Assembly (NCBI RefSeq): GCF_005405905.1
Contig: NZ_BJHU01000005.1
Span: 186,001 to 250,000 of the forward strand
Source: Acidovorax sp. NB1
GTDB taxonomy: Bacteria; Pseudomonadota; Gammaproteobacteria; Burkholderiales; Burkholderiaceae_C
Length of the DNA: 64,000 nucleotides
Direction: 5' to 3'
The translations under genes and the position numbers were made by a program. Positions 19,350-26,984 of the stretch are shown here, in pieces. The notes beneath the pieces were generated by a model, which saw only the letters and a program-made list of their open reading frames with translations, was not told the DNA's origin and ran no database searches. How positions within the stretch are numbered: the first letter of the stretch is position 1; each line of letters starts with the position of its first letter.

Positions 19350-20396
19350 CTAGGGCAGGTTTTCCCGAAAGATGACCTGGCTGCGGGTGGCCTCCACACC
19401 GCTCGTGGCGTCCCGCCCGTCCCGCAGGTTGGCAAAGATACGCACGCAGTTCATCACCGCGCCGAGCGGGTTCTGCGTGATGACCGCATCCATGGTGCCG
19501 TCGATCAGCAGAGCGCGGGTGTCGGGCGTGAGGCCGTGGCCGATGAAGACCACCTTGTGCTCCAGCCCGGCTTCCTTGAGGGCGCGGCCGATGCCTTCTG
19601 CGCCGCCACCGATGTTGTAGATGCCGGCCAGGTCGGGGTGCTGCTCCAGCAGACTGCGCGCCTGCTGGTAGTTGCGCTCGGCGTCGTCCTGGCCCTCGCG
19701 CACACCCACCACTTGCACCAAAGGGAATTGTTCTTCGAACAAGTGCAGAAAGCCTGCCTCGCGCTCCTCGTGCGCGCGGTAGCGCAGCGAGCCCACGATC
19801 ATCGCCACGCGGGCGTTGCGGCTGAGCGCCAGCGGGCCCATGAAGCGGGCAATGAGGTAGCCCGCGGTGCGGCCCGCCGCACGGTTGTCCAGGCCCACAT
19901 AGGCCGCCCGGCGCGAGCTCGACAGGTCCGAGATCAGCGTGACGGTGGGCACACCCTGCTCGGCCAGTTGGGCCACGGCCTCACGCACCACGGGGTGCTC
20001 CAGCGCCATGAAGGCAATGCCGTCGCATCGCTTGCCGTGGTGCAGCAGCGCTTTGGCCAAAGCATCTGGGTTGAAGCTCTCGATGTAGGCTGCCTGGCAG
20101 CGCACGTTGAACGGTGCCCAATGCTCCTGCGCGTAGCCGATCACATCGCCCAGCATCTGCAAAAAGCGGTTGCTGCCCTCGGGGATCAGCACCATCAAAC
20201 GCAGGGGCTGCGGCTGTGCCTGCAGCGTGGCTTGCGCCTCTGCCTGCGGCAAATACCCCAGGCTGATGGCCGCCTGCATCACGCGCTGCACGGTGGCACT
20301 GCGTACGCCCGCGCGCTGGTTGAGCACCCGGTCCACCGTGGCGGTGGAGACACCAGACAACTGGGCGATATCAGGGATGCGGGGGTGTTTGGACAT
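19350..20396 (-). CDS. LacI-family transcriptional regulator
   Basis: This 348-residue protein has the N-terminal LacI HTH (IPDIAQLSGVSTATVDRVLNQRAGVRSATVQRVMQAA) and a sugar-binding-protein-like sensor (LMVLIPEGSNRFLQMLGDVIGYAQE, CDGIAFMALEHPVVREAV, YVGLDNRAAGRTAGYLIARFMG, GIYNIGGGAEGIGRAL). The VGLDNRAAGRTAGYL block is typical of periplasmic-binding-type folds with a carbohydrate ligand. It is divergent from the transporter/RuBisCO-like operon, so it is the likely repressor. A 9-bp perfect inverted repeat lies just upstream. A start three codons further up (MIF) is possible. Confidence 0.9.
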   Translation of the reverse strand: MSKHPRIPDIAQLSGVSTATVDRVLNQRAGVRSATVQRVMQAAISLGYLPQAEAQATLQAQPQPLRLMVLIPEGSNRFLQMLGDVIGYAQEHWAPFNVRCQAAYIESFNPDALAKALLHHGKRCDGIAFMALEHPVVREAVAQLAEQGVPTVTLISDLSSSRRAAYVGLDNRAAGRTAGYLIARFMGPLALSRNARVAMIVGSLRYRAHEEREAGFLHLFEEQFPLVQVVGVREGQDDAERNYQQARSLLEQHPDLAGIYNIGGGAEGIGRALKEAGLEHKVVFIGHGLTPDTRALLIDGTMDAVITQNPLGAVMNCVRIFANLRDGRDATSGVEATRSQVIFRENLP

Positions 20397-20409
20397 AAAA
20401 ATCAATCAA

Positions 20410-20444
20410 AATCCATCATTGCATTTGCTGGTATTTGATGGATT
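20410..20444. promoter_or_regulatory. Candidate LacI-regulator operator (inverted repeat)
   Basis: AATCCATCA and TGATGGATT are perfect complements with 17 bases between them, in the divergent gap 14-48 bp upstream of the LacI gene. The spacing is longer than a single LacI palindrome, so this may be two half-sites or a looped pair. No better palindrome is seen in the gap. Confidence 0.5.
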
Positions 20445-20548
20445 CTGCGGATAGTATCACTGCAGCTTCGGTGCCGAAAGGCATCAAATTCGATCAGTAC
20501 AAACCCTAGATTGCGGCGGCACAGACCGACTGCACAGGAGACAAGCCC

Positions 20549-20608
20549 ATGCCTGATATCCCTTCTTCGTTCCGCCGACGCGCGCCCTGCACCGCCCGCC
20601 TGGGCTAG
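20549..20608 (+). CDS. Short leader ORF (19 residues) at the head of the ABC operon
   Basis: An ATG preceded by an excellent GGAG ribosome-binding site opens a 19-codon frame, MPDIPSSFRRRAPCTARLG, which ends 17 nt before the permease ATG. The permease itself has no good ribosome-binding site, so it may depend on translation of this leader. The frame differs from that of the permease. It has four Arg codons and one Cys. It is not recognised as a known leader peptide. It could also be the remains of a frameshifted start. Confidence 0.45.
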   Translation: MPDIPSSFRRRAPCTARLG

Positions 20609-20625
20609 ATCGCTGCTGCGGCTCC

Positions 20626-21309
20626 ATGCAATACGAATTCGACTTTGCCAGCGTGCTGGCCAACTGGCCCCAGTTTCTGGAAGGGGCCTGGATGACCATC
20701 CTGCTGTCCTTCCCGGCCACGGTGATTGGTTTTGTGGGCGGCACGCTATTGGCAATTGGCCGGCGCGGCAACACGCCTTGGGTGGCCAAGACCTGCGGTG
20801 CCTATGTGGAAGTGCTGCGCAACACGCCGCTGCTGGTGCAGGTGTTTCTGGTGTTCTTCGGCCTGGCCAGCCTGGGCTGGAAGGTGCCTGCATTTGCAGC
20901 GGCGTTGCTGACGCTGGTGATCAACGTGGCGGCCTACACCTGCGAAATCATGCGCGCCGGCATGGACTCCATCCACAAGGGCCAGATCGAGGCCGCCGAA
21001 TGCCTGGGCCTGACGCGGCGGCAGGTGTACTGGCATGTGGTGCTGCGCCCGGCCATGGAGAAGGTCTACCCCGCGCTCACCAGCCAGTTCGTGCTGCTGA
21101 TGCTGGCCTCGTCCATCACCTCGCAGATCTCGGTGGAGGAGCTGACGGCCATCGCGGCCCGCGTGCAGTCTGAAACCTTCCGCCCCTTCGAGGCCTACAT
21201 CCTGGTCGCCGTGGCCTACCTGGTGCTGTCGCTGCTGATGCGCGCCGGGCTGTGGCTGTTCGGTCAGATCGTGTTCACGCGCCAACGCAAACTGAGGAGC
21301 GCCAAATGA
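20626..21309 (+). CDS. Polar amino acid-type ABC transporter permease, subunit 1
   Basis: This 227-residue inner-membrane permease of the HisMQ/GlnP type has about five helices, starting with WMTILLSFPATVIGFVGGTLLAIG. The EAA loop is AAECLGLTRRQVYWHVVLRPAM, the site that docks to the ATPase. It opens the transporter operon and is coupled to the second permease by an ATGA overlap. There is no clear Shine-Dalgarno before its ATG. A heterodimer with the next gene product is expected. The family mostly moves amino acids, but the operon context here is acid-sugar catabolism. Confidence 0.9.
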   Translation: MQYEFDFASVLANWPQFLEGAWMTILLSFPATVIGFVGGTLLAIGRRGNTPWVAKTCGAYVEVLRNTPLLVQVFLVFFGLASLGWKVPAFAAALLTLVINVAAYTCEIMRAGMDSIHKGQIEAAECLGLTRRQVYWHVVLRPAMEKVYPALTSQFVLLMLASSITSQISVEELTAIAARVQSETFRPFEAYILVAVAYLVLSLLMRAGLWLFGQIVFTRQRKLRSAK

Positions 21310-21992
21310 TCGACGGTGGACTGAATGCACACCACCTGCAGTACCTGCTGTTCGGCGCGCTGTGGACCATCGGCCTGTCGCTGATCGCCTTTGTGGGCGG
21401 CGGCCTGGCCGGGGGCGTGATTGCGCTGTGCCGCGTCAGCCCCATCAAGGCGGTGCGCTGGACCACGATTGCGTGGATCCAGATCATCCAGGGCACGCCG
21501 CTGCTGGTGGTGCTGTTCCTGTGCTACTTCGGCCTTTCCATCATGGGGCTGGAGCTGCCCGCCATCGTGGCCGCCAGCATCGCGATGATTGTTTACGTCA
21601 GTGCCTACCTGGGCGAAATCTGGCGCGGTTGCATCGAATCGGTGCCGCGCACGCAGTGGGAGGCGGCCGAATGCCTGGCCCTGTCGCGCACCCAGCGCAT
21701 GCGGCTGGTGGTGCTGCCCCAGGCGGTGCGCATTGCCACCCCGCCCACGGTGGGCTTCATGGTGCAGATCGTCAAGAACACGTCGCTCGCGTCCATCGTG
21801 GGGTTCATCGAGCTGGTGCGTGCCGGGCAGCTCATCAACAACTCCATCTTCCAGCCGTTCACCGTGTACCTGCTGATTGCCATCGTGTACTTCGCAATGT
21901 GCTATCCGCTGTCGGTCTGGAGCCGCAAGCTGGAGCAGCGCCAGCAGTTTGGAAACCGTGGCACGGCCACCCCTTCTGTGACCACCGCATGA
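21306..21992 (+). CDS. Polar amino acid-type ABC transporter permease, subunit 2
   Basis: This is a 228-residue HisMQ-type permease with a first helix LLFGALWTIGLSLIAFVGGGLAGGVIAL and the EAA motif AAECLALSRTQRMRLVVLPQAV. The sequence QGTPLLVVLFLCYFGL is the typical substrate-path helix. It starts inside the stop codon of subunit 1 and should pair with it in the membrane. Its last codons overlap a possible upstream start of the ATPase gene. Confidence 0.9.
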   Translation: MIDGGLNAHHLQYLLFGALWTIGLSLIAFVGGGLAGGVIALCRVSPIKAVRWTTIAWIQIIQGTPLLVVLFLCYFGLSIMGLELPAIVAASIAMIVYVSAYLGEIWRGCIESVPRTQWEAAECLALSRTQRMRLVVLPQAVRIATPPTVGFMVQIVKNTSLASIVGFIELVRAGQLINNSIFQPFTVYLLIAIVYFAMCYPLSVWSRKLEQRQQFGNRGTATPSVTTA

Positions 21993-22006
21993 AACGAGAA
22001 GACACC

Positions 22007-22789
22007 ATGAACCTCGCCCGAGACGCTGCCGTGCAACCCTCCCAGCCAGCGGCTTCGCCTGCGCACACCGTCGTTGAGCTGAAGGATGTGCACAAGAGCT
22101 TCGGCAGCAACCAGGTGCTCAAGGGCGTGTCGTTCGCCATTCCTAAGGGCCAGGTCGTTGCCATCATCGGCAAGAGCGGGTCGGGCAAAAGCACCGCGCT
22201 GCGCTGCATCGACCGGCTGGAGATCATTGACAGCGGCACCATCCACGTGTGCGGCCACGCGGTGCACGACCCGGCCATCGACCTGCGCCAGCTGCGGCAG
22301 GACGTGGGCATCGTGTTCCAGAGCTACAACCTGTTCCCGCACCTCACGGTGGAGCAGAACATCACGCTCGCGCCCAAGGCCGTCAAGAACCTGCCCGCCG
22401 CCCAGGCGCGTGCCATTGCCGCACGCACACTGCAGCAGGTGGGCCTGGCCGACAAGGCGCAGGCCTACCCCGAGCAGCTATCGGGCGGCCAGCAGCAGCG
22501 CGTGGCCATTGCACGGTCGCTGGCCATGGAGCCGCAGGTGATGCTGTTCGACGAAGTGACCTCGGCGCTGGACCCACAGCTCACCGGCGAGGTGCTGCGC
22601 GTCATCGAATCGCTGGCCCAGGGCGGCATGACCATGGTGCTGGTCACCCACGAGATGGAATTCGCCGCGCGCGTGGCCGACACAGTGATCTACATGCACG
22701 AGGGCAAGGTCTGGGAGACCGGCCCCGGCGACATGCTGAAGAACCCGCAAACGGCCGAGCTGCGCGACTTTCTGTCGCACGGGCTGTGA
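22007..22789 (+). CDS. ABC transporter ATP-binding protein (GlnQ/HisP type)
   Basis: This 260-residue ATPase has an intact Walker A (GKSGSGKSTALRC), Q-loop (IVFQSYNLFPHLTV), signature (LSGGQQQRVAIARSLAMEP) and Walker B (VMLFDEVTSALDP). It also has the H-loop (VTHEMEFA). These match the polar amino acid uptake family (family 3). An ATG 18 nt upstream overlaps the permease stop, but the chosen ATG has an acceptable AGAAGA-type site. It powers the two permeases encoded just upstream. Confidence 0.93.
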   Translation: MNLARDAAVQPSQPAASPAHTVVELKDVHKSFGSNQVLKGVSFAIPKGQVVAIIGKSGSGKSTALRCIDRLEIIDSGTIHVCGHAVHDPAIDLRQLRQDVGIVFQSYNLFPHLTVEQNITLAPKAVKNLPAAQARAIAARTLQQVGLADKAQAYPEQLSGGQQQRVAIARSLAMEPQVMLFDEVTSALDPQLTGEVLRVIESLAQGGMTMVLVTHEMEFAARVADTVIYMHEGKVWETGPGDMLKNPQTAELRDFLSHGL

Positions 22790-22839
22790 TCCGTTCCTTT
22801 TTTGATTCCCTTGCCAAAAACCACCAGGAGACATTTCAC

Positions 22840-23640
22840 ATGACCGCTTCCCGCACCCGCATCCTGCGCCGCGCCCTGCTCGCCACCGCCGCAGCCGCCC
22901 TGTGCCTGCCCGCCATGGCAGACCTGGCCGAGATCAAGTCCGCCGGCAAACTGCGCGTGGGCATCGACTTTGGCGCGCCGTTCTATGGCTATGTGGACGA
23001 GAAGATGAAGCCCGTGGGCTCGGACGTGGAAGCGGCCGAGTTGCTGGCCAAGGACCTGGGCCTGACGCTGGAGATCGTGAACACCACCAACTCCGCGCGC
23101 ATCCCCAACCTGTTGTCGAACAAGGTGGACCTGATCATCTCGTCGCTGTCGATCACGCCCGAGCGCCAGAAGGCCGTGGACTTCTCCATGCCCTACGGCG
23201 CCATCCAGGCGGCCGTGGGCGCGCCCAAGAGCCTCAAGCTCACCAGCATCGACGATCTGGCGGGCAAGACGGTGGCCGTGACGCGCGGTGGCCCGCAGGA
23301 CAAGATCGTGACCGAGCGCGCGCCGCAGGCCAAGGTGGTGCGCTTTGACGATGAATCCGCCTCCATCACCGCTGCCGCCACGGGACAGGCCGACATCGTG
23401 GCCATCACGCCGCCCATCATCACGGCCATTGCCAAGAAGAACCCGGCGCGCGAGTTCGAGACCAAGTTCATCCTGCAGTCTTACCAGTTGGGCATGGCCA
23501 TGCGCAAGGGCCAACCCGAGCTGATGAAGGCCGTCAACGGCTGGATCAAGACCAACCTGACCAACGGCAAGCTCAACGACATCCACCTGAAGTACGCGGG
23601 CGTGCCGATCCCCAAGGAAATCATCGACGGCGCCAAGTAA
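22840..23640 (+). CDS. Periplasmic solute-binding protein, family 3
   Basis: This 266-residue protein has a signal peptide (RRALLATAAAALCLPAMA, cleaved near residue 27) followed by the family-3 start AEIKSAGKLRVGIDFGAPFYGYVDE. SSLSITPERQKAVDFSMPYG and VAVTRGGPQDKIVTE are the usual hinge and second-lobe blocks. The ligand-binding Arg/Asp positions seen in amino acid binders are not clear to me, so the ligand may not be an amino acid. A GGAG site precedes the start. It completes a four-gene transporter unit. Confidence 0.9.
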   Translation: MTASRTRILRRALLATAAAALCLPAMADLAEIKSAGKLRVGIDFGAPFYGYVDEKMKPVGSDVEAAELLAKDLGLTLEIVNTTNSARIPNLLSNKVDLIISSLSITPERQKAVDFSMPYGAIQAAVGAPKSLKLTSIDDLAGKTVAVTRGGPQDKIVTERAPQAKVVRFDDESASITAAATGQADIVAITPPIITAIAKKNPAREFETKFILQSYQLGMAMRKGQPELMKAVNGWIKTNLTNGKLNDIHLKYAGVPIPKEIIDGAK

Positions 23641-23736
23641 GCGCTGCACCGTAGGCAAAGGCGAGTGACGGCCGGTGGGCAATGCCCCCGTTCAGCGCTG
23701 CCCTGCCCTGACGCATCACCATCAAAGGAAATTCTT

Positions 23737-24279
23737 ATGAGCCGTCACTTCGGCGCCATCCGCCAGCTGGGCTATGTGGTCCACGACATCGAAGCCGCCA
23801 TGGACTACTGGAGCAACACCCTGGGCGTCGGCCCCTGGTTCTACAACCCCAAGGTTCCGATCAAGAACTACGTCTACCGGGGCGAGTCGCACGAACCGCA
23901 CAACTCGGTGGCGCTCGCCAACTCGGGCTACGTGCAGGTCGAGCTGATCCAGACCCGCAACGACGTGCCATCGATGTACCGCGACTTTTTGCAGGCCGGG
24001 CGCACCGGGCTGCAGCACGTGGCCTACTGGACCAGCGACTACGACGCCGACCTGGCACGCCTGACTGCCCAGGGCTTCAAGGCGGTGATGAGCGGCGAGG
24101 TGGGCGAGAAAGGCCGCTTTGTGTACTTTGACACCGAGTACCACCCGGGCACGGTGATCGAGCTGTCGGAAGTGGCCGGCCCCAAGGGCCGCATGTTCGA
24201 CCTGATCCGCGCCGAGTCGGAAACCTGGGACGGCAAGACCGACCCGGTGCGCCCCTTCCCGGACCTCTCCAAGATCTGA
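23737..24279 (+). CDS. VOC-superfamily protein (methylmalonyl-CoA epimerase-like fold)
   Basis: This 180-residue protein has two betaalphabeta repeats of the vicinal oxygen chelate fold: IRQLGYVVHDIEAAMDYWSNTLGVGPW and GLQHVAYWTSDYDADLARL. Likely metal ligands are the Gln/His region near residue 10, Glu in VQVELIQ, His in LQHVAYW and Glu in GTVIELSEV. Members are isomerases, epimerases or dioxygenases, and a role in rearranging a sugar-acid intermediate of this operon is inference. It lies 96 bp after the binding-protein gene, with AAAGGAA before the start, and 74 bp before the RuBisCO-like gene. Confidence 0.82.
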   Translation: MSRHFGAIRQLGYVVHDIEAAMDYWSNTLGVGPWFYNPKVPIKNYVYRGESHEPHNSVALANSGYVQVELIQTRNDVPSMYRDFLQAGRTGLQHVAYWTSDYDADLARLTAQGFKAVMSGEVGEKGRFVYFDTEYHPGTVIELSEVAGPKGRMFDLIRAESETWDGKTDPVRPFPDLSKI

Positions 24280-24280
24280 T

Positions 24281-24337
24281 TTCAAGCCAAATAGCCCTTT
24301 ACCGCCTGTCCATAAAGCGCTAGCAGCTATCAAAACC
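24281..24337 (+). repeat. Dispersed intergenic repeat, copy 4
   Basis: TTCAAGCCAAATAGCCCTTT, then ACCGCCTGTCCATAAAGCGC and TAGCAGCTATCAAAAC fill the gap between the VOC and RuBisCO-like genes. The block order is the same as in copies 1-3. Confidence 0.7.
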
Positions 24338-24353
24338 ATAGTGCACTCTGCCC

Positions 24354-25634
24354 ATGTCCCCAGACCGCTTTGAAGCCACCTACCTGATCGAAACCCCGCT
24401 GGACCCCGCCCACGTGGCCGAGGTGCTGGCGGGCGAGCAATCGTGTGGCACCTTCACCCGGGTGGAGGGCGAGACCGATGCGCTGCGCGAACGCGCCCGC
24501 GCCACGGTCGAATCCATCGAGCTGCTGGACGTGGCGCCCGCGCCGTCGCTGCCCAATGGCTGGATGCAGCGGCGCGGCATGTTCGGCACACCACAGACCT
24601 GGCAGCGCGCCCGGCTGCGCGTGAGCTTCCCCTGCGGCAACATCGGCCCCAACCTGCCGACGCTGGCGGCCACGGTGTCGGGCAACCTGTTCGACCTGGG
24701 CGAGGTCACCGGCTTGCGACTGGAGTCGATGAAGCTGCCGCGCGCCTACCGCGAGCAGTTTGATATGCCCCGCCAAGGTATTGCAGGCACACGCGCGCTG
24801 ACCGGCGTGCAGGGCCGCCCGCTCATCGGCACCATCATCAAACCCAACGTGGGTTTATCGGCCGAAGAAACCGGTGAACTGGCGGGCCGCCTGTGCGCCG
24901 CTGGGGTGGACTTCATCAAGGATGACGAGGTGTGCGCCAACCCGGTGCACGCCCCGCTGGCCGACCGCGTGAAATCCGTGATGCGCCGTGTGCGGGCCCA
25001 CCAGGACAAGACCGGCAAGCTCGTGATGGTGGCGTTCAACATCACCGACGAAACCGATGCCATGCGCCGCCACGCCGACCTGATTGCCGCCGAGGGTGGC
25101 AGCTGTGTGATGGTCAGCCTGAACTGGTGCGGCTACTCCGCCATACAGACGTTGCGCCGCCACACCCCGCTGGCCCTGCACGGCCACCGCAACGGCTACG
25201 GCGCCCTGTCGCGCCACCCGTTGCTGGGCTTTTCGTTCAATGCCTGGCAGACGCTGTGGCGCCTGGCGGGTGTGGACCACATGCATGTACACGGCCTGCA
25301 GGGCAAGTTCTCGCAGACCGATGAGGAAGTGATCGAATCCGCGCACAACACCCTGGCGCCCCTGTGCGAAGGGCTGGACGACCGCGTGCTGCCCGCGTTC
25401 TCCAACGGCCAATGGGCTGGCACGGTGCCCGCCACCTGGGACAGCGTGCGCAGCAACGACCTGCTGTTCATGTCCGGCGGCGGCATTCTGGCCCACCCCG
25501 ATGGCGCGGCCGCTGGCGTGGCCAGCCTGCAGCAGGCCTGGGACGCGGTGCAGAACGGCGAGACGCTGGCCCAGCGTGCGGAACATGCCGTTGAACTGCG
25601 CCACGCCATTGACTTCTTTGGCAAGAAGCACTGA
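24354..25634 (+). CDS. RuBisCO-like protein (form IV, OiaX/OiaT-like)
   Basis: This is a 426-residue RuBisCO large-chain family member. Aligned by eye to spinach RuBisCO, catalytic positions are kept: Lys163 in IIKPNVG (K175), Lys189-Asp190-Asp191-Glu192 in FIKDDEV (K201/D203/E204, the carbamylated Lys and Mg ligands), His278-Arg279 in LHGHRNG (H294/R295), HMH before GLQGK, and Lys318 in the loop-6 region. Loop 6 itself is QGKFSQT, not GKLEG. This points to a RuBisCO-like enzyme acting on a phosphorylated acid sugar by decarboxylation or hydrolysis, not carbon fixation. A DUF1537 kinase follows 3 bp later, as in known OiaK/OiaX pairs. Confidence 0.88.
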   Translation: MSPDRFEATYLIETPLDPAHVAEVLAGEQSCGTFTRVEGETDALRERARATVESIELLDVAPAPSLPNGWMQRRGMFGTPQTWQRARLRVSFPCGNIGPNLPTLAATVSGNLFDLGEVTGLRLESMKLPRAYREQFDMPRQGIAGTRALTGVQGRPLIGTIIKPNVGLSAEETGELAGRLCAAGVDFIKDDEVCANPVHAPLADRVKSVMRRVRAHQDKTGKLVMVAFNITDETDAMRRHADLIAAEGGSCVMVSLNWCGYSAIQTLRRHTPLALHGHRNGYGALSRHPLLGFSFNAWQTLWRLAGVDHMHVHGLQGKFSQTDEEVIESAHNTLAPLCEGLDDRVLPAFSNGQWAGTVPATWDSVRSNDLLFMSGGGILAHPDGAAAGVASLQQAWDAVQNGETLAQRAEHAVELRHAIDFFGKKH

Positions 25635-25637
25635 ACC

Positions 25638-26984
25638 ATGTCCACCACAGCTCCCCGGTTTGGCTGGTACGGCGACGACTTCACCGGAGCCACCGACACC
25701 CTGGCCGTGCTCGCACGGGCAGGCCTGCGGTCCATGCTGTTCATGGGCGTACCCAGCGCAGAAGCTCTGGTCGCCGCCGGGCCGCTGGACGCCGTGGGCA
25801 TTGCAGGCGCCGCGCGCGCCATGCCGCCCGAAGCCATGCGCGCAGAACTGGCCCCCGTGGGCCGCTTTTTCAGGCAGATCGCACCCACCGTGTTGCACTA
25901 CAAGGTGTGCTCCACCTTCGACAGCGCTCCGCATGTCGGCAACATCGCCTGCGCCATCGAGACACTGCACCCCAGCGTGGACAACCGCTGGGTACCCATC
26001 CTCGGCGGCCAGCCCAGCCTGGGCAGATACTGCGCCTTCAGCAACCTGTTTGCTGCGGCCGGCACGGGGGGGGCCGTCTACCGCATTGACCGGCACCCGA
26101 CGATGCACCGGCACCCGGTGACCCCCATGGCAGAAGCCGACTTGCGGGTGCACCTGGCGCAGCAGGGTTTGCAAGGCATCACGGCACTGCATTACCCGCT
26201 GTACGAAGCAGACACCTTGCCCAGCTCTCTGAACACCCTGCTGGGCCATGGCGCGACCGCTGCGCCCGAGGTGTCCGACACGCCATTCGTGCCTACGCTG
26301 CTGGACCTGACCAGTGCAGACCATCTGGCCAGCGTGGGGCGCCTGCTGTGGCAGCAAGCCCAGCGCGGCCGCTTGCTCGCCGTGGGGCCCAGCTCCGTGG
26401 CCCAGGCGCTGATCGCGTGCTGGGGTGCGCGGGTCAGCCAACCCGCCCCTGCCTTGGCACCATCGCCTGGCCCTGTGCTCGCCTGGGCGGGCAGCCTGTC
26501 ACCCATCACAGCGGCCCAGGTCCAGGCCGCAACGTCCTATCAGCGCATCCCGGTGGACGCGCACCGGCTGGCCCATGACACCGACTACGCCCAGGCCACC
26601 CAACGCGCGATATGCGCCGGGCTGCAGCAGGGGCATCATGTGCTGGCCTACACCGGTACCACGGACGGAGCTCCTGCCCCGTCCGGTGGTGCTTCAGCGG
26701 CCGTCGCCGCCGCCAGTGCGGCCCTGGTCGCCCGCGTGGTGCAGGCGCAGGCCGACAACGGCACTCCGCTGCGGCGCATTGGCATTGCGGGGGGCGATAC
26801 CTCCAGCCACGCGGTGCAGGCGCTGCAGCTGTGGGGGCTGTCGTACCAAACCACGGTCTGCCCCGGGGTCACGCTGAGCCGCGCGCACAGTGCCGACCCG
26901 TCCCGCGACGGGCTGGAGCTGATGCTCAAGGGGGGGCAGATGGGCGGAACGGACCTTTTCGAAAGACTGCTGGGCGTGGGCTGA
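25638..26984 (+). CDS. Four-carbon acid sugar kinase family protein (DUF1537)
   Basis: This 448-residue kinase has the N-terminal DUF1537 sugar-binding signature FGWYGDDFTGATDTLAVLARAG. The C-terminal nucleotide-binding domain has AGGDTSSHAVQALQLWGL and a conserved Gly-rich end (LMLKGGQMGG). Family members phosphorylate acid sugars such as threonate, erythronate or 3-oxo-isoapionate. Its partner, the RuBisCO-like protein, lies immediately upstream, so it very likely makes the phosphorylated substrate of that enzyme. The actual sugar acid cannot be read from sequence. Confidence 0.87.
   Translation: MSTTAPRFGWYGDDFTGATDTLAVLARAGLRSMLFMGVPSAEALVAAGPLDAVGIAGAARAMPPEAMRAELAPVGRFFRQIAPTVLHYKVCSTFDSAPHVGNIACAIETLHPSVDNRWVPILGGQPSLGRYCAFSNLFAAAGTGGAVYRIDRHPTMHRHPVTPMAEADLRVHLAQQGLQGITALHYPLYEADTLPSSLNTLLGHGATAAPEVSDTPFVPTLLDLTSADHLASVGRLLWQQAQRGRLLAVGPSSVAQALIACWGARVSQPAPALAPSPGPVLAWAGSLSPITAAQVQAATSYQRIPVDAHRLAHDTDYAQATQRAICAGLQQGHHVLAYTGTTDGAPAPSGGASAAVAAASAALVARVVQAQADNGTPLRRIGIAGGDTSSHAVQALQLWGLSYQTTVCPGVTLSRAHSADPSRDGLELMLKGGQMGGTDLFERLLGVG

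What the first reader, a model, noticed from the sequence alone, without database searches (positions are those of the whole stretch)
20397..26984. Unassigned acid-sugar pathway: family-3 ABC transporter, VOC protein, RuBisCO-like protein and DUF1537 kinase under a LacI repressor
Seen: one strand carries a leader ORF, two HisMQ-type permeases, a GlnQ-type ATPase, a family-3 binding protein, a VOC protein, a RuBisCO-like protein with most RuBisCO catalytic residues (K163, K189/D191/E192, H278, K318) but a changed loop 6 (QGKFSQT), and a DUF1537 kinase, divergent from a LacI gene. Known: OiaK/OiaX-type pairs (DUF1537 kinase plus RuBisCO-like enzyme) degrade 3-oxo-isoapionate. Inference: a similar phosphorylation-decarboxylation pathway, but without ApnL/ApnO genes here, with a transporter family normally used for amino acids, and with a VOC enzyme that may do an isomerisation. 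The substrate may be new.
Basis: partly seen in the sequence, partly recalled or inferred. Interest (0 to 1): 0.75.

Follow-up and report, generated by a model that had tools for sequence, protein, structure and literature searches.

The report
Divergent RuBisCO-like acid-sugar catabolic operon
A soil- and plant-type bacterium carries a self-contained, widely shared gene set that probably imports a sugar acid, phosphorylates it and breaks it with a cousin of the CO2-fixing enzyme RuBisCO; it resembles the known apiose pathway but is a separate branch whose substrate we could not identify.

Summary
The genes are as described. The RuBisCO-like protein (RLP) and DUF1537 kinase score 403 and 294 bits against OiaX/OiaK equivalog cut-offs of 700, and the RLP forms its own clade (SH-aLRT 100). 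The same genome also carries an apionate-type locus (kinase over the OiaK cut-off, 727 bits) and an L-threonate otn operon, so this is a third DUF1537 system. In 80 named loci holding close RLP relatives, VOC is present in 80, LacI in 78 and the kinase in 79, once fused to the RLP. The family-3 ABC transporter is not diagnostic: 13 of 80 have it, 67 have TRAP transporters. On the RLP tree VOC needs 2 changes, the transporter 9. One locus keeps LacI, TRAP and VOC but has an Oia-type RLP and kinase (L172), suggesting related chemistry. Proposed mechanism (inferred): VOC isomerises a 2-oxo acid to the 3-oxo acid, DUF1537 phosphorylates it, the RLP cleaves it by decarboxylation or OiaT-like cleavage. 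A conserved ATCA-N6-ATCA operator points to a one-operon LacI regulon. The substrate remains unknown.

The parts
19350..20396 (-). LacI-family regulator (ATG at 20396; sugar-binding Peripla_BP_4 domain)
   Evidence: at least 55% identity in 78 of 80 named loci
20404..20418 (+). operator-like site 1, AATCAAAATCCATCA (direct repeat ATCA-N6-ATCA)
   Evidence: 111 such repeats in 58 LacI intergenic regions against 0.18 expected in single-letter shuffles
20482..20496 (+). operator-like site 2, CATCAAATTCGATCA
20549..20608 (+).
   Evidence: frame read directly from the sequence
20626..21309 (+). ABC permease 1, polar amino acid (family 3) type
   Evidence: HEQRo_perm_3TM above cut-off
21306..21992 (+). 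ABC permease 2, same type
21989..22789 (+). ABC ATPase, GlnQ-like (alternative ATG at 22007)
22840..23640 (+). family-3 solute-binding protein, signal-peptide-like start (by eye)
23737..24279 (+). VOC protein, 180 aa; proposed metal ligands Q10, E69, H94, E142 invariant in 28 sequences
   Evidence: pLDDT 91.9; 3gm5 Z 16.8
24354..25634 (+). RuBisCO-like protein, 426 aa, own clade; solved relative 3nwr
25638..26984 (+). DUF1537 (SBD_N/NBD_C) acid-sugar kinase

Best explanation
A LacI-controlled catabolic operon for one imported sugar acid. Shown: gene content, its conservation, and the kinship of each protein. Inferred: the ABC transporter (a TRAP transporter in most relatives) imports a sugar acid that is a 2-oxo acid or becomes one. 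The VOC protein, by the metal-assisted enediolate proton transfer typical of its fold, isomerises it to the 3-oxo acid. The DUF1537 kinase phosphorylates the terminal hydroxyl. The RLP, with an almost complete RuBisCO active site including the carbamate lysine and loop-6 lysine, breaks the C-C bond of the 3-oxo acid, most simply by decarboxylation to an enediolate that is protonated to a ketose phosphate. The scheme copies the otn logic (2-oxo-tetronate isomerase, 3-oxo-tetronate kinase, 3-oxo-tetronate 4-phosphate decarboxylase) with VOC in the isomerase role and RLP in the decarboxylase role; an SDR dehydrogenase sits in front in 9 of 80 loci. A C4 acid would give dihydroxyacetone phosphate and a C6 acid a pentulose phosphate, so no further genes would be needed.
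For: Constant core in 80 named loci: VOC 80, LacI 78 (the 2 without lie on contigs of 6,047 and 4,752 bases), kinase 79 (L061's contig ends just after the RLP). RLP and kinase fused in one 878-aa ORF in L077. VOC changes twice on the RLP tree, the transporter nine times. E60, N123, K175, K201, D203, E204, H294, R295, H325, H327 and K334 equivalents kept in 94 of 94 window-type rows. VOC model: best match is a putative methylmalonyl-CoA epimerase, an isomerase-type fold. The DUF1537 family includes curated 3-oxo-acid kinases that this protein matches below cut-off. Among gene clusters found in the 97 loci compared, none beyond regulator, transporter, VOC, RLP and kinase is constant (cluster list seen, per-locus table cut in the middle). 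Operator matches in the own genome point to this operon only. Named otn enzymes are present separately in the own genome.
Against: No substrate, product or activity is known. In 71 of 80 named loci no SDR of this type is found, so the source of the oxo group is unexplained there; the own genome gave no SDR10 match at E 1e-40, without a positive control. VOC proteins also do epimerisations, dioxygenations and other chemistry. Q at the first proposed metal position differs from the usual His of methylmalonyl-CoA epimerases (ligand mapping recalled). Module exchange with an Oia-type pair (L172) argues for a branched, isoapionate-like substrate rather than a linear one.
Confidence: 0.5

Rival explanations
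1. A second entrance to the known 3-oxo-isoapionate route: VOC makes 3-oxo-isoapionate (or the same skeleton) from an isomer, a carbon-skeleton ketol shift replacing ApnO; the kinase makes the 4-phosphate; the RLP works like OiaT (transcarboxylation/hydrolysis to 3-phosphoglycerate and glycolate, products recalled) and not like OiaX.
For: L172 keeps LacI (61%), TRAP (74-75%) and VOC (79%) with an Oia-type RLP and kinase, and G559 has no other RLP at E 1e-80. Window-type and Oia-type RLPs keep E60, N123, H325 and H327 equivalents; the four OiaX rows have D, G, Q, Q. No match to the D-erythrulose-4-phosphate isomerase model in the own genome; the OiaX locus L181 carries one over the cut-off.
Against: The own genome already has an apionate-type locus with its own transporter, kinase and RLP. 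The two own-genome RLPs are only 49% identical and the types differ at the K177 position (N in 94 of 94, S in 19 of 19). A single clear exchange case.
Confidence: 0.28
2. VOC is an epimerase that sets a stereocentre, and the RLP is an isomerase or tautomerase (like MtnW or the R. rubrum RLP, recalled) that does not break a C-C bond.
For: Nearest solved VOC relatives are methylmalonyl-CoA epimerases. [quoted passage not shown]
Against: The characterised relatives named in PMC6302742 (passages read) act on C-C bonds, and the CO2-handling lysine K334 is kept. The two MtnW models score far lower than OiaX: 152 and 119 against 403 bits.
Confidence: 0.12
3. The operon degrades an amino-acid-like or opine-like compound, as the transporter family suggests.
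For: Family-3 permeases and binding protein; best PDB relatives are amino acid binding proteins and ancestral cyclohexadienyl dehydratases.
Against: 67 of 80 named loci use TRAP transporters and none of 80 has both types; TRAP substrates are typically carboxylates (PMC5812351, passage). None of the window's core genes is a transaminase or ammonia lyase.
Confidence: 0.06

Closest known systems
D-apionate catabolism through OiaK with OiaX or OiaT (Carter et al. 2018; not held, cited second-hand from PMC6302742)
   Same: DUF1537 kinase plus RLP as adjacent genes; same superfamilies; RLP about 40-53% identical to the Oia-type and OiaX rows compared, with shared catalytic residues
   Different: RLP and kinase below the equivalog cut-offs and in their own clades; LacI rather than GntR; VOC instead of ApnO; K177 position N instead of S or A
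otn operon (L-threonate dehydrogenase, 2-oxo-tetronate isomerase, 3-oxo-tetronate kinase, 3-oxo-tetronate 4-phosphate decarboxylase)
   Same: a DUF1537 kinase; the proposed order oxidise, isomerise, phosphorylate, decarboxylate
   Different: VOC and RLP would replace the hydroxypyruvate-isomerase-type isomerase and the otn decarboxylase; kinase 148.5 bits against cut-off 350; an otn set exists elsewhere in the genome
PDB 3nwr, 'a rubisco-like protein'
   Same: clade level by score: 648 bits over 422 residues
   Different: solved structure only; the entry name gives no function (organism Burkholderia fungorum is recalled)

Membership tests
OiaX (NF042437, 3-oxo-isoapionate-4-phosphate decarboxylase) | score over the curated cut-off of 700 bits | tested here: not met
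   402.8 bits; three RLPs L181, L183, L185 score 779-782. The own C6 RLP also fails (430.0), and none of 276 genomes of the class passes
OiaX (NF042437, 3-oxo-isoapionate-4-phosphate decarboxylase) | groups with OiaX in a tree | tested here: not met
   32 window-type rows form one clade, SH-aLRT 100, apart from OiaX rows L181 and L185 (quick method, no bootstrap)
OiaK (NF042436, 3-oxo-isoapionate kinase) | score over the curated cut-off of 700 bits | tested here: not met
   293.6 bits; own-genome C6 kinase 727.3. The test is strict: the kinase next to OiaX in L181 has only 465.9
OiaT (transcarboxylase/hydrolase) | C-C cleavage to 3-phosphoglycerate and glycolate (recalled) | not testable with these tools
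   no model or reference sequence labelled OiaT appeared in any call; needs an assay
D-apionate pathway | ApnO/ApnL genes in the operon | tested here: not met
   none among the window's operon genes; an ApnO-like gene, named by context, lies in the separate C6 locus
3-oxo-tetronate kinase OtnK (NF043035) | score over the curated cut-off of 350 bits | tested here: not met
   148.5 bits; the own-genome C21 kinase scores 649.5
RuBisCO, forms I-III | active-site lysines K175 and K177 with loop-6 K334 (recalled definition) | tested here: not met
   K175 and K334 kept, K177 is N in 94 of 94 window-type rows
methylmalonyl-CoA epimerase (TIGR03081) | score over the curated cut-off of 114.95 bits | tested here: not met
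   28.3 bits; fold shared
RuBisCO/RuBisCO-like superfamily | RuBisCO_large catalytic domain | tested here: met
   PF00016, 221 bits
DUF1537 acid-sugar kinase superfamily | SBD_N and NBD_C domains | tested here: met
   PF07005 150.6 bits, PF17042 90.1 bits

The most novel reading that the evidence does not exclude
A RuBisCO-superfamily reaction not yet described, on a substrate without a known catabolic route: a VOC-type 2-oxo/3-oxo acid isomerase feeds a DUF1537 kinase and an RLP that decarboxylates the 3-oxo acid phosphate straight to a central ketose phosphate. One bold version: the substrate is 2-carboxyarabinitol (hamamelonate, the dephosphorylated plant RuBisCO inhibitor; recalled), and the RLP runs the RuBisCO carboxylation step backwards on its 3-keto phosphate. 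Nothing in the calls points to that compound in particular.
Probability: 0.35. Interest if true: 0.75.

Novelty: new variant of a known kind. Interest (0 to 1): 0.55.

Why it matters
RuBisCO-like proteins show which chemistry the RuBisCO active site can do besides CO2 fixation, and few have known functions. This clade keeps more of the RuBisCO active site than the OiaX rows do, is tied to one further enzyme (VOC) across many genera, has a crystal structure without a stated function, and comes with what looks like a single-operon regulator. The substrate can therefore be sought by ligand screening and simple genetics, and would add a carbon source for soil and plant-associated bacteria.

Tried and rejected
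Ligand from a solved relative: the TRAP binding protein of these operons best matches 4oan (450 bits; Z 34.6), whose density I recall as modelled with 2-acetolactate. The entry title is cut off in the tool, and the review PMC5812351 (passage) lists 2-acetolactate among newly assigned TRAP ligands without naming 4oan. I looked at 18 neighbourhoods: the seven with a protein 80-89% identical to 4oan (L229, L230, L231, L232, L234, L235, L237) show no RLP in the printed stretch and lie near ORFs that look like acyl-CoA ligases (by eye). So 4oan is a neighbouring subfamily and I do not transfer its ligand.

Other TRAP variants of window-type loci (L112, L167) have no close solved relative (best 149 and 155 bits). 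The own-genome C6 binding protein is close to 4pdd (527 bits), which concerns the apionate-type locus only.

Regulon search for a missing dehydrogenase: six matches to ATCAAANNCNATCA in the own genome, two here; the other four lie inside called ORFs. No further target.

G845 (L227) keeps LacI, DctP and VOC without the large TRAP membrane gene, RLP or kinase beside them; its only RLP at E 1e-80 is in an ApnO-type locus about 5 Mb away on the contig. I read it as a decayed operon, not as evidence of exchange.

First idea that window G375 stands for RuBisCO S379 was wrong: it aligns with the G403 loop, so no claim is made there.

Literature: searches listed no paper that I recognised as describing this gene set; I read passages of PMC5812351, PMC6302742, PMC7325909 and PMC9833052 only. 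The primary papers (Carter 2018, Zhang 2016, Vetting 2015) are not held, so 'not in print' is not shown. One search was for hamamelonate and carboxyarabinitol terms.
Full report
The window carries, divergent from a LacI-family gene, two family-3 permeases, an ATPase, a family-3 binding protein, a VOC protein, a RuBisCO-like protein (RLP) and a DUF1537 kinase, at the stated coordinates and close together.

It is not the OiaX/OiaK pair as the curated models define it. The RLP scores 402.8 bits against the OiaX equivalog (cut-off 700) and the kinase 293.6 against OiaK (cut-off 700). The cut-offs are strict: the own-genome C6 RLP scores 430.0, none of 276 genomes of the class passes the OiaX cut-off, and the kinase beside OiaX in L181 scores only 465.9 against OiaK. 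The tree is the better evidence: among 57 RLP rows the 32 window-type rows form one clade with SH-aLRT 100 (quick search, no bootstrap, long outgroup branches flagged by the tool). The kinase tree of 50 rows shows the same division with weaker support, 87 and 90.

The genome has three DUF1537 genes and two RLPs. On contig C6 lies an apionate-type locus: kinase over the OiaK cut-off (727.3), RLP, TRAP transporter, GntR-like regulator and an ApnO-like gene (ApnO named by context and recall, no model confirmed it). On contig C21 lies an otn operon: L-threonate dehydrogenase 453 (cut-off 350), 3-oxo-tetronate kinase 650 (350), 2-oxo-tetronate isomerase 409 (325) and 3-oxo-tetronate 4-phosphate decarboxylase 227.5, just under its cut-off of 250. 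So the window operon is the third system, and by elimination its substrate is probably neither D-apionate nor L-threonate; redundancy cannot be excluded.

The unit is widespread and constant. Of these 80, VOC (at least 60% identity) is present in 80, LacI (55%) in 78, the kinase (40%) as a separate gene in 78 and fused to the RLP in one more (L077, 878 aa without a stop); the remaining one, L061, ends just after the RLP. The family-3 binding protein (60%) is present in 13, the main TRAP type (45%) in 65, another TRAP type in 2, and ABC together with main TRAP in none; an SDR (cluster 10; 60%) is present in 9. These 80 were chosen for RLP similarity, so they show what goes with this clade, not its frequency. 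Frequency: 18 of 119 relatives including the own genome hold an RLP at least 71% identical (one of them a partial match), and 8 of 397 genomes across the phylum, again with the own one, at least 59%.

On the RLP tree VOC needs two changes, which fit the base of the window clade and L172; the transporter needs nine and the SDR six (57 rows, transporter labelled in 42). VOC therefore belongs to the chemistry and the transporter is interchangeable.

One natural exchange is informative. L172 has LacI (61%), both TRAP proteins (74-75%) and VOC (79%) in window-type order, but its RLP and kinase belong to the Oia type, and that genome has no other RLP at E 1e-80. This suggests that the two RLP/kinase pairs do similar chemistry. 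It is one case; G845, which looked like a second, seems to be a decayed operon. Other loci combine Oia-type RLP and kinase with SDR genes and TRAP or family-3 ABC transporters, without VOC (L034, L170, L171, L236). So the same core has at least three front ends: ApnO-like, SDR, and VOC with or without SDR.

Residues: across 117 aligned RLP rows (94 window-type, 19 Oia-type, 4 that I placed in the OiaX group, of which 3 were scored against the model; rows partly redundant), the equivalents of E60, N123, H325 and H327 are kept in all window-type and Oia-type rows and are D, G, Q, Q in the four OiaX rows. K175, K201, D203, E204, H294, R295 and K334 are kept in all 117. The K177 position is N, S and A respectively, without exception. 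By this the window type resembles the Oia type more than the decarboxylase OiaX.

VOC: 28 sequences at 68-98% identity to the window's, with Q10, E69, H94 and E142 invariant, modelled at pLDDT 91.9, closest to 3gm5, a putative methylmalonyl-CoA epimerase (Z 16.8 over 139 residues, next 13.0; profile match 69.7 bits). That these four are metal ligands follows from recalled epimerase structures.

Regulation: in 58 LacI-adjacent regions (58 of 93 LacI rows passed my start filter; some are near-duplicates) the direct repeat ATCA-N6-ATCA occurs 111 times, in 54 of 58, against 0.18 expected in single-letter shuffles. The window has two copies. The own genome has six matches to a stricter form, two of them here and four inside called ORFs. 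The regulon is most likely this operon alone; LacI binding itself is not shown.

Mechanism. Nothing here measures activity. The scheme I commit to is uptake, VOC isomerisation to a 3-oxo acid, phosphorylation by DUF1537, and C-C cleavage by the RLP. No further gene cluster is constant in the loci compared, which suggests that the products enter central metabolism directly: dihydroxyacetone phosphate from a C4 acid, pentulose phosphate from a C6 acid, or 3-phosphoglycerate plus glycolate by an OiaT-type reaction. The own genome gave no match to the D-erythrulose-4-phosphate isomerase model (control hits in 7 of 14 genomes, none over the cut-off), which speaks mildly against an OiaX-like product. 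PMC6302742 (passages) reports that RLPs catalyse decarboxylation and transcarboxylation/hydrolysis of 3-oxo-isoapionate 4-phosphate. The pathway steps of otn and OiaT beyond the model names are recalled.

Novelty: a new variant of a known kind, the DUF1537 kinase plus RLP acid-sugar pathway. The substrate, the VOC reaction and the RLP product are open. Nine literature searches listed nothing that I recognised as this gene set, but the primary papers are not in the library.

Noticed in passing
L077:9950-12583: RLP and DUF1537 kinase fused in one 878-aa open frame in Paenalcaligenes niemegkensis.
   Followed up: yes
L003 (own genome C6:36000-54000): Apionate-type locus: GntR-like regulator, OiaK-type kinase over cut-off, RLP, TRAP transporter, ApnO-like dehydrogenase; its binding protein is close to PDB 4pdd.
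   Followed up: partly
L246:2470-9828 (own genome C21): otn operon with L-threonate dehydrogenase, 3-oxo-tetronate kinase, 2-oxo-tetronate isomerase, a decarboxylase just under cut-off and a GntP-family permease.
   Followed up: yes
window 20404-20418 and 20482-20496: The LacI-family operator appears to be a direct repeat (ATCA-N6-ATCA, about one helical turn), in 35 of 58 loci present as exactly two copies, mostly 73-90 bases apart, instead of the palindrome usual for the family (recalled).
   Followed up: partly
L034:2313-8849: In a same-genus genome: Oia-type RLP and kinase, SDR and a family-3 ABC transporter (binding protein 44%, permeases 59-62% to the window) without VOC or LacI: another front end.
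   Followed up: partly
L184:7879-16219: RLP, kinase, a beta-keto-acid cleavage enzyme-like protein (below cut-offs), two SDRs and a TRAP transporter in one stretch.
   Followed up: no
L227:6647-9492: Probable remnant: LacI, DctP and VOC left without the large TRAP membrane gene, RLP or kinase beside them.
   Followed up: partly
L229, L230, L231, L232, L234, L235, L237: Orthologues of the 4oan TRAP binding protein sit with TRAP membrane genes and near, by eye, acyl-CoA ligase-like ORFs; no RLP in the printed stretch.
   Followed up: no
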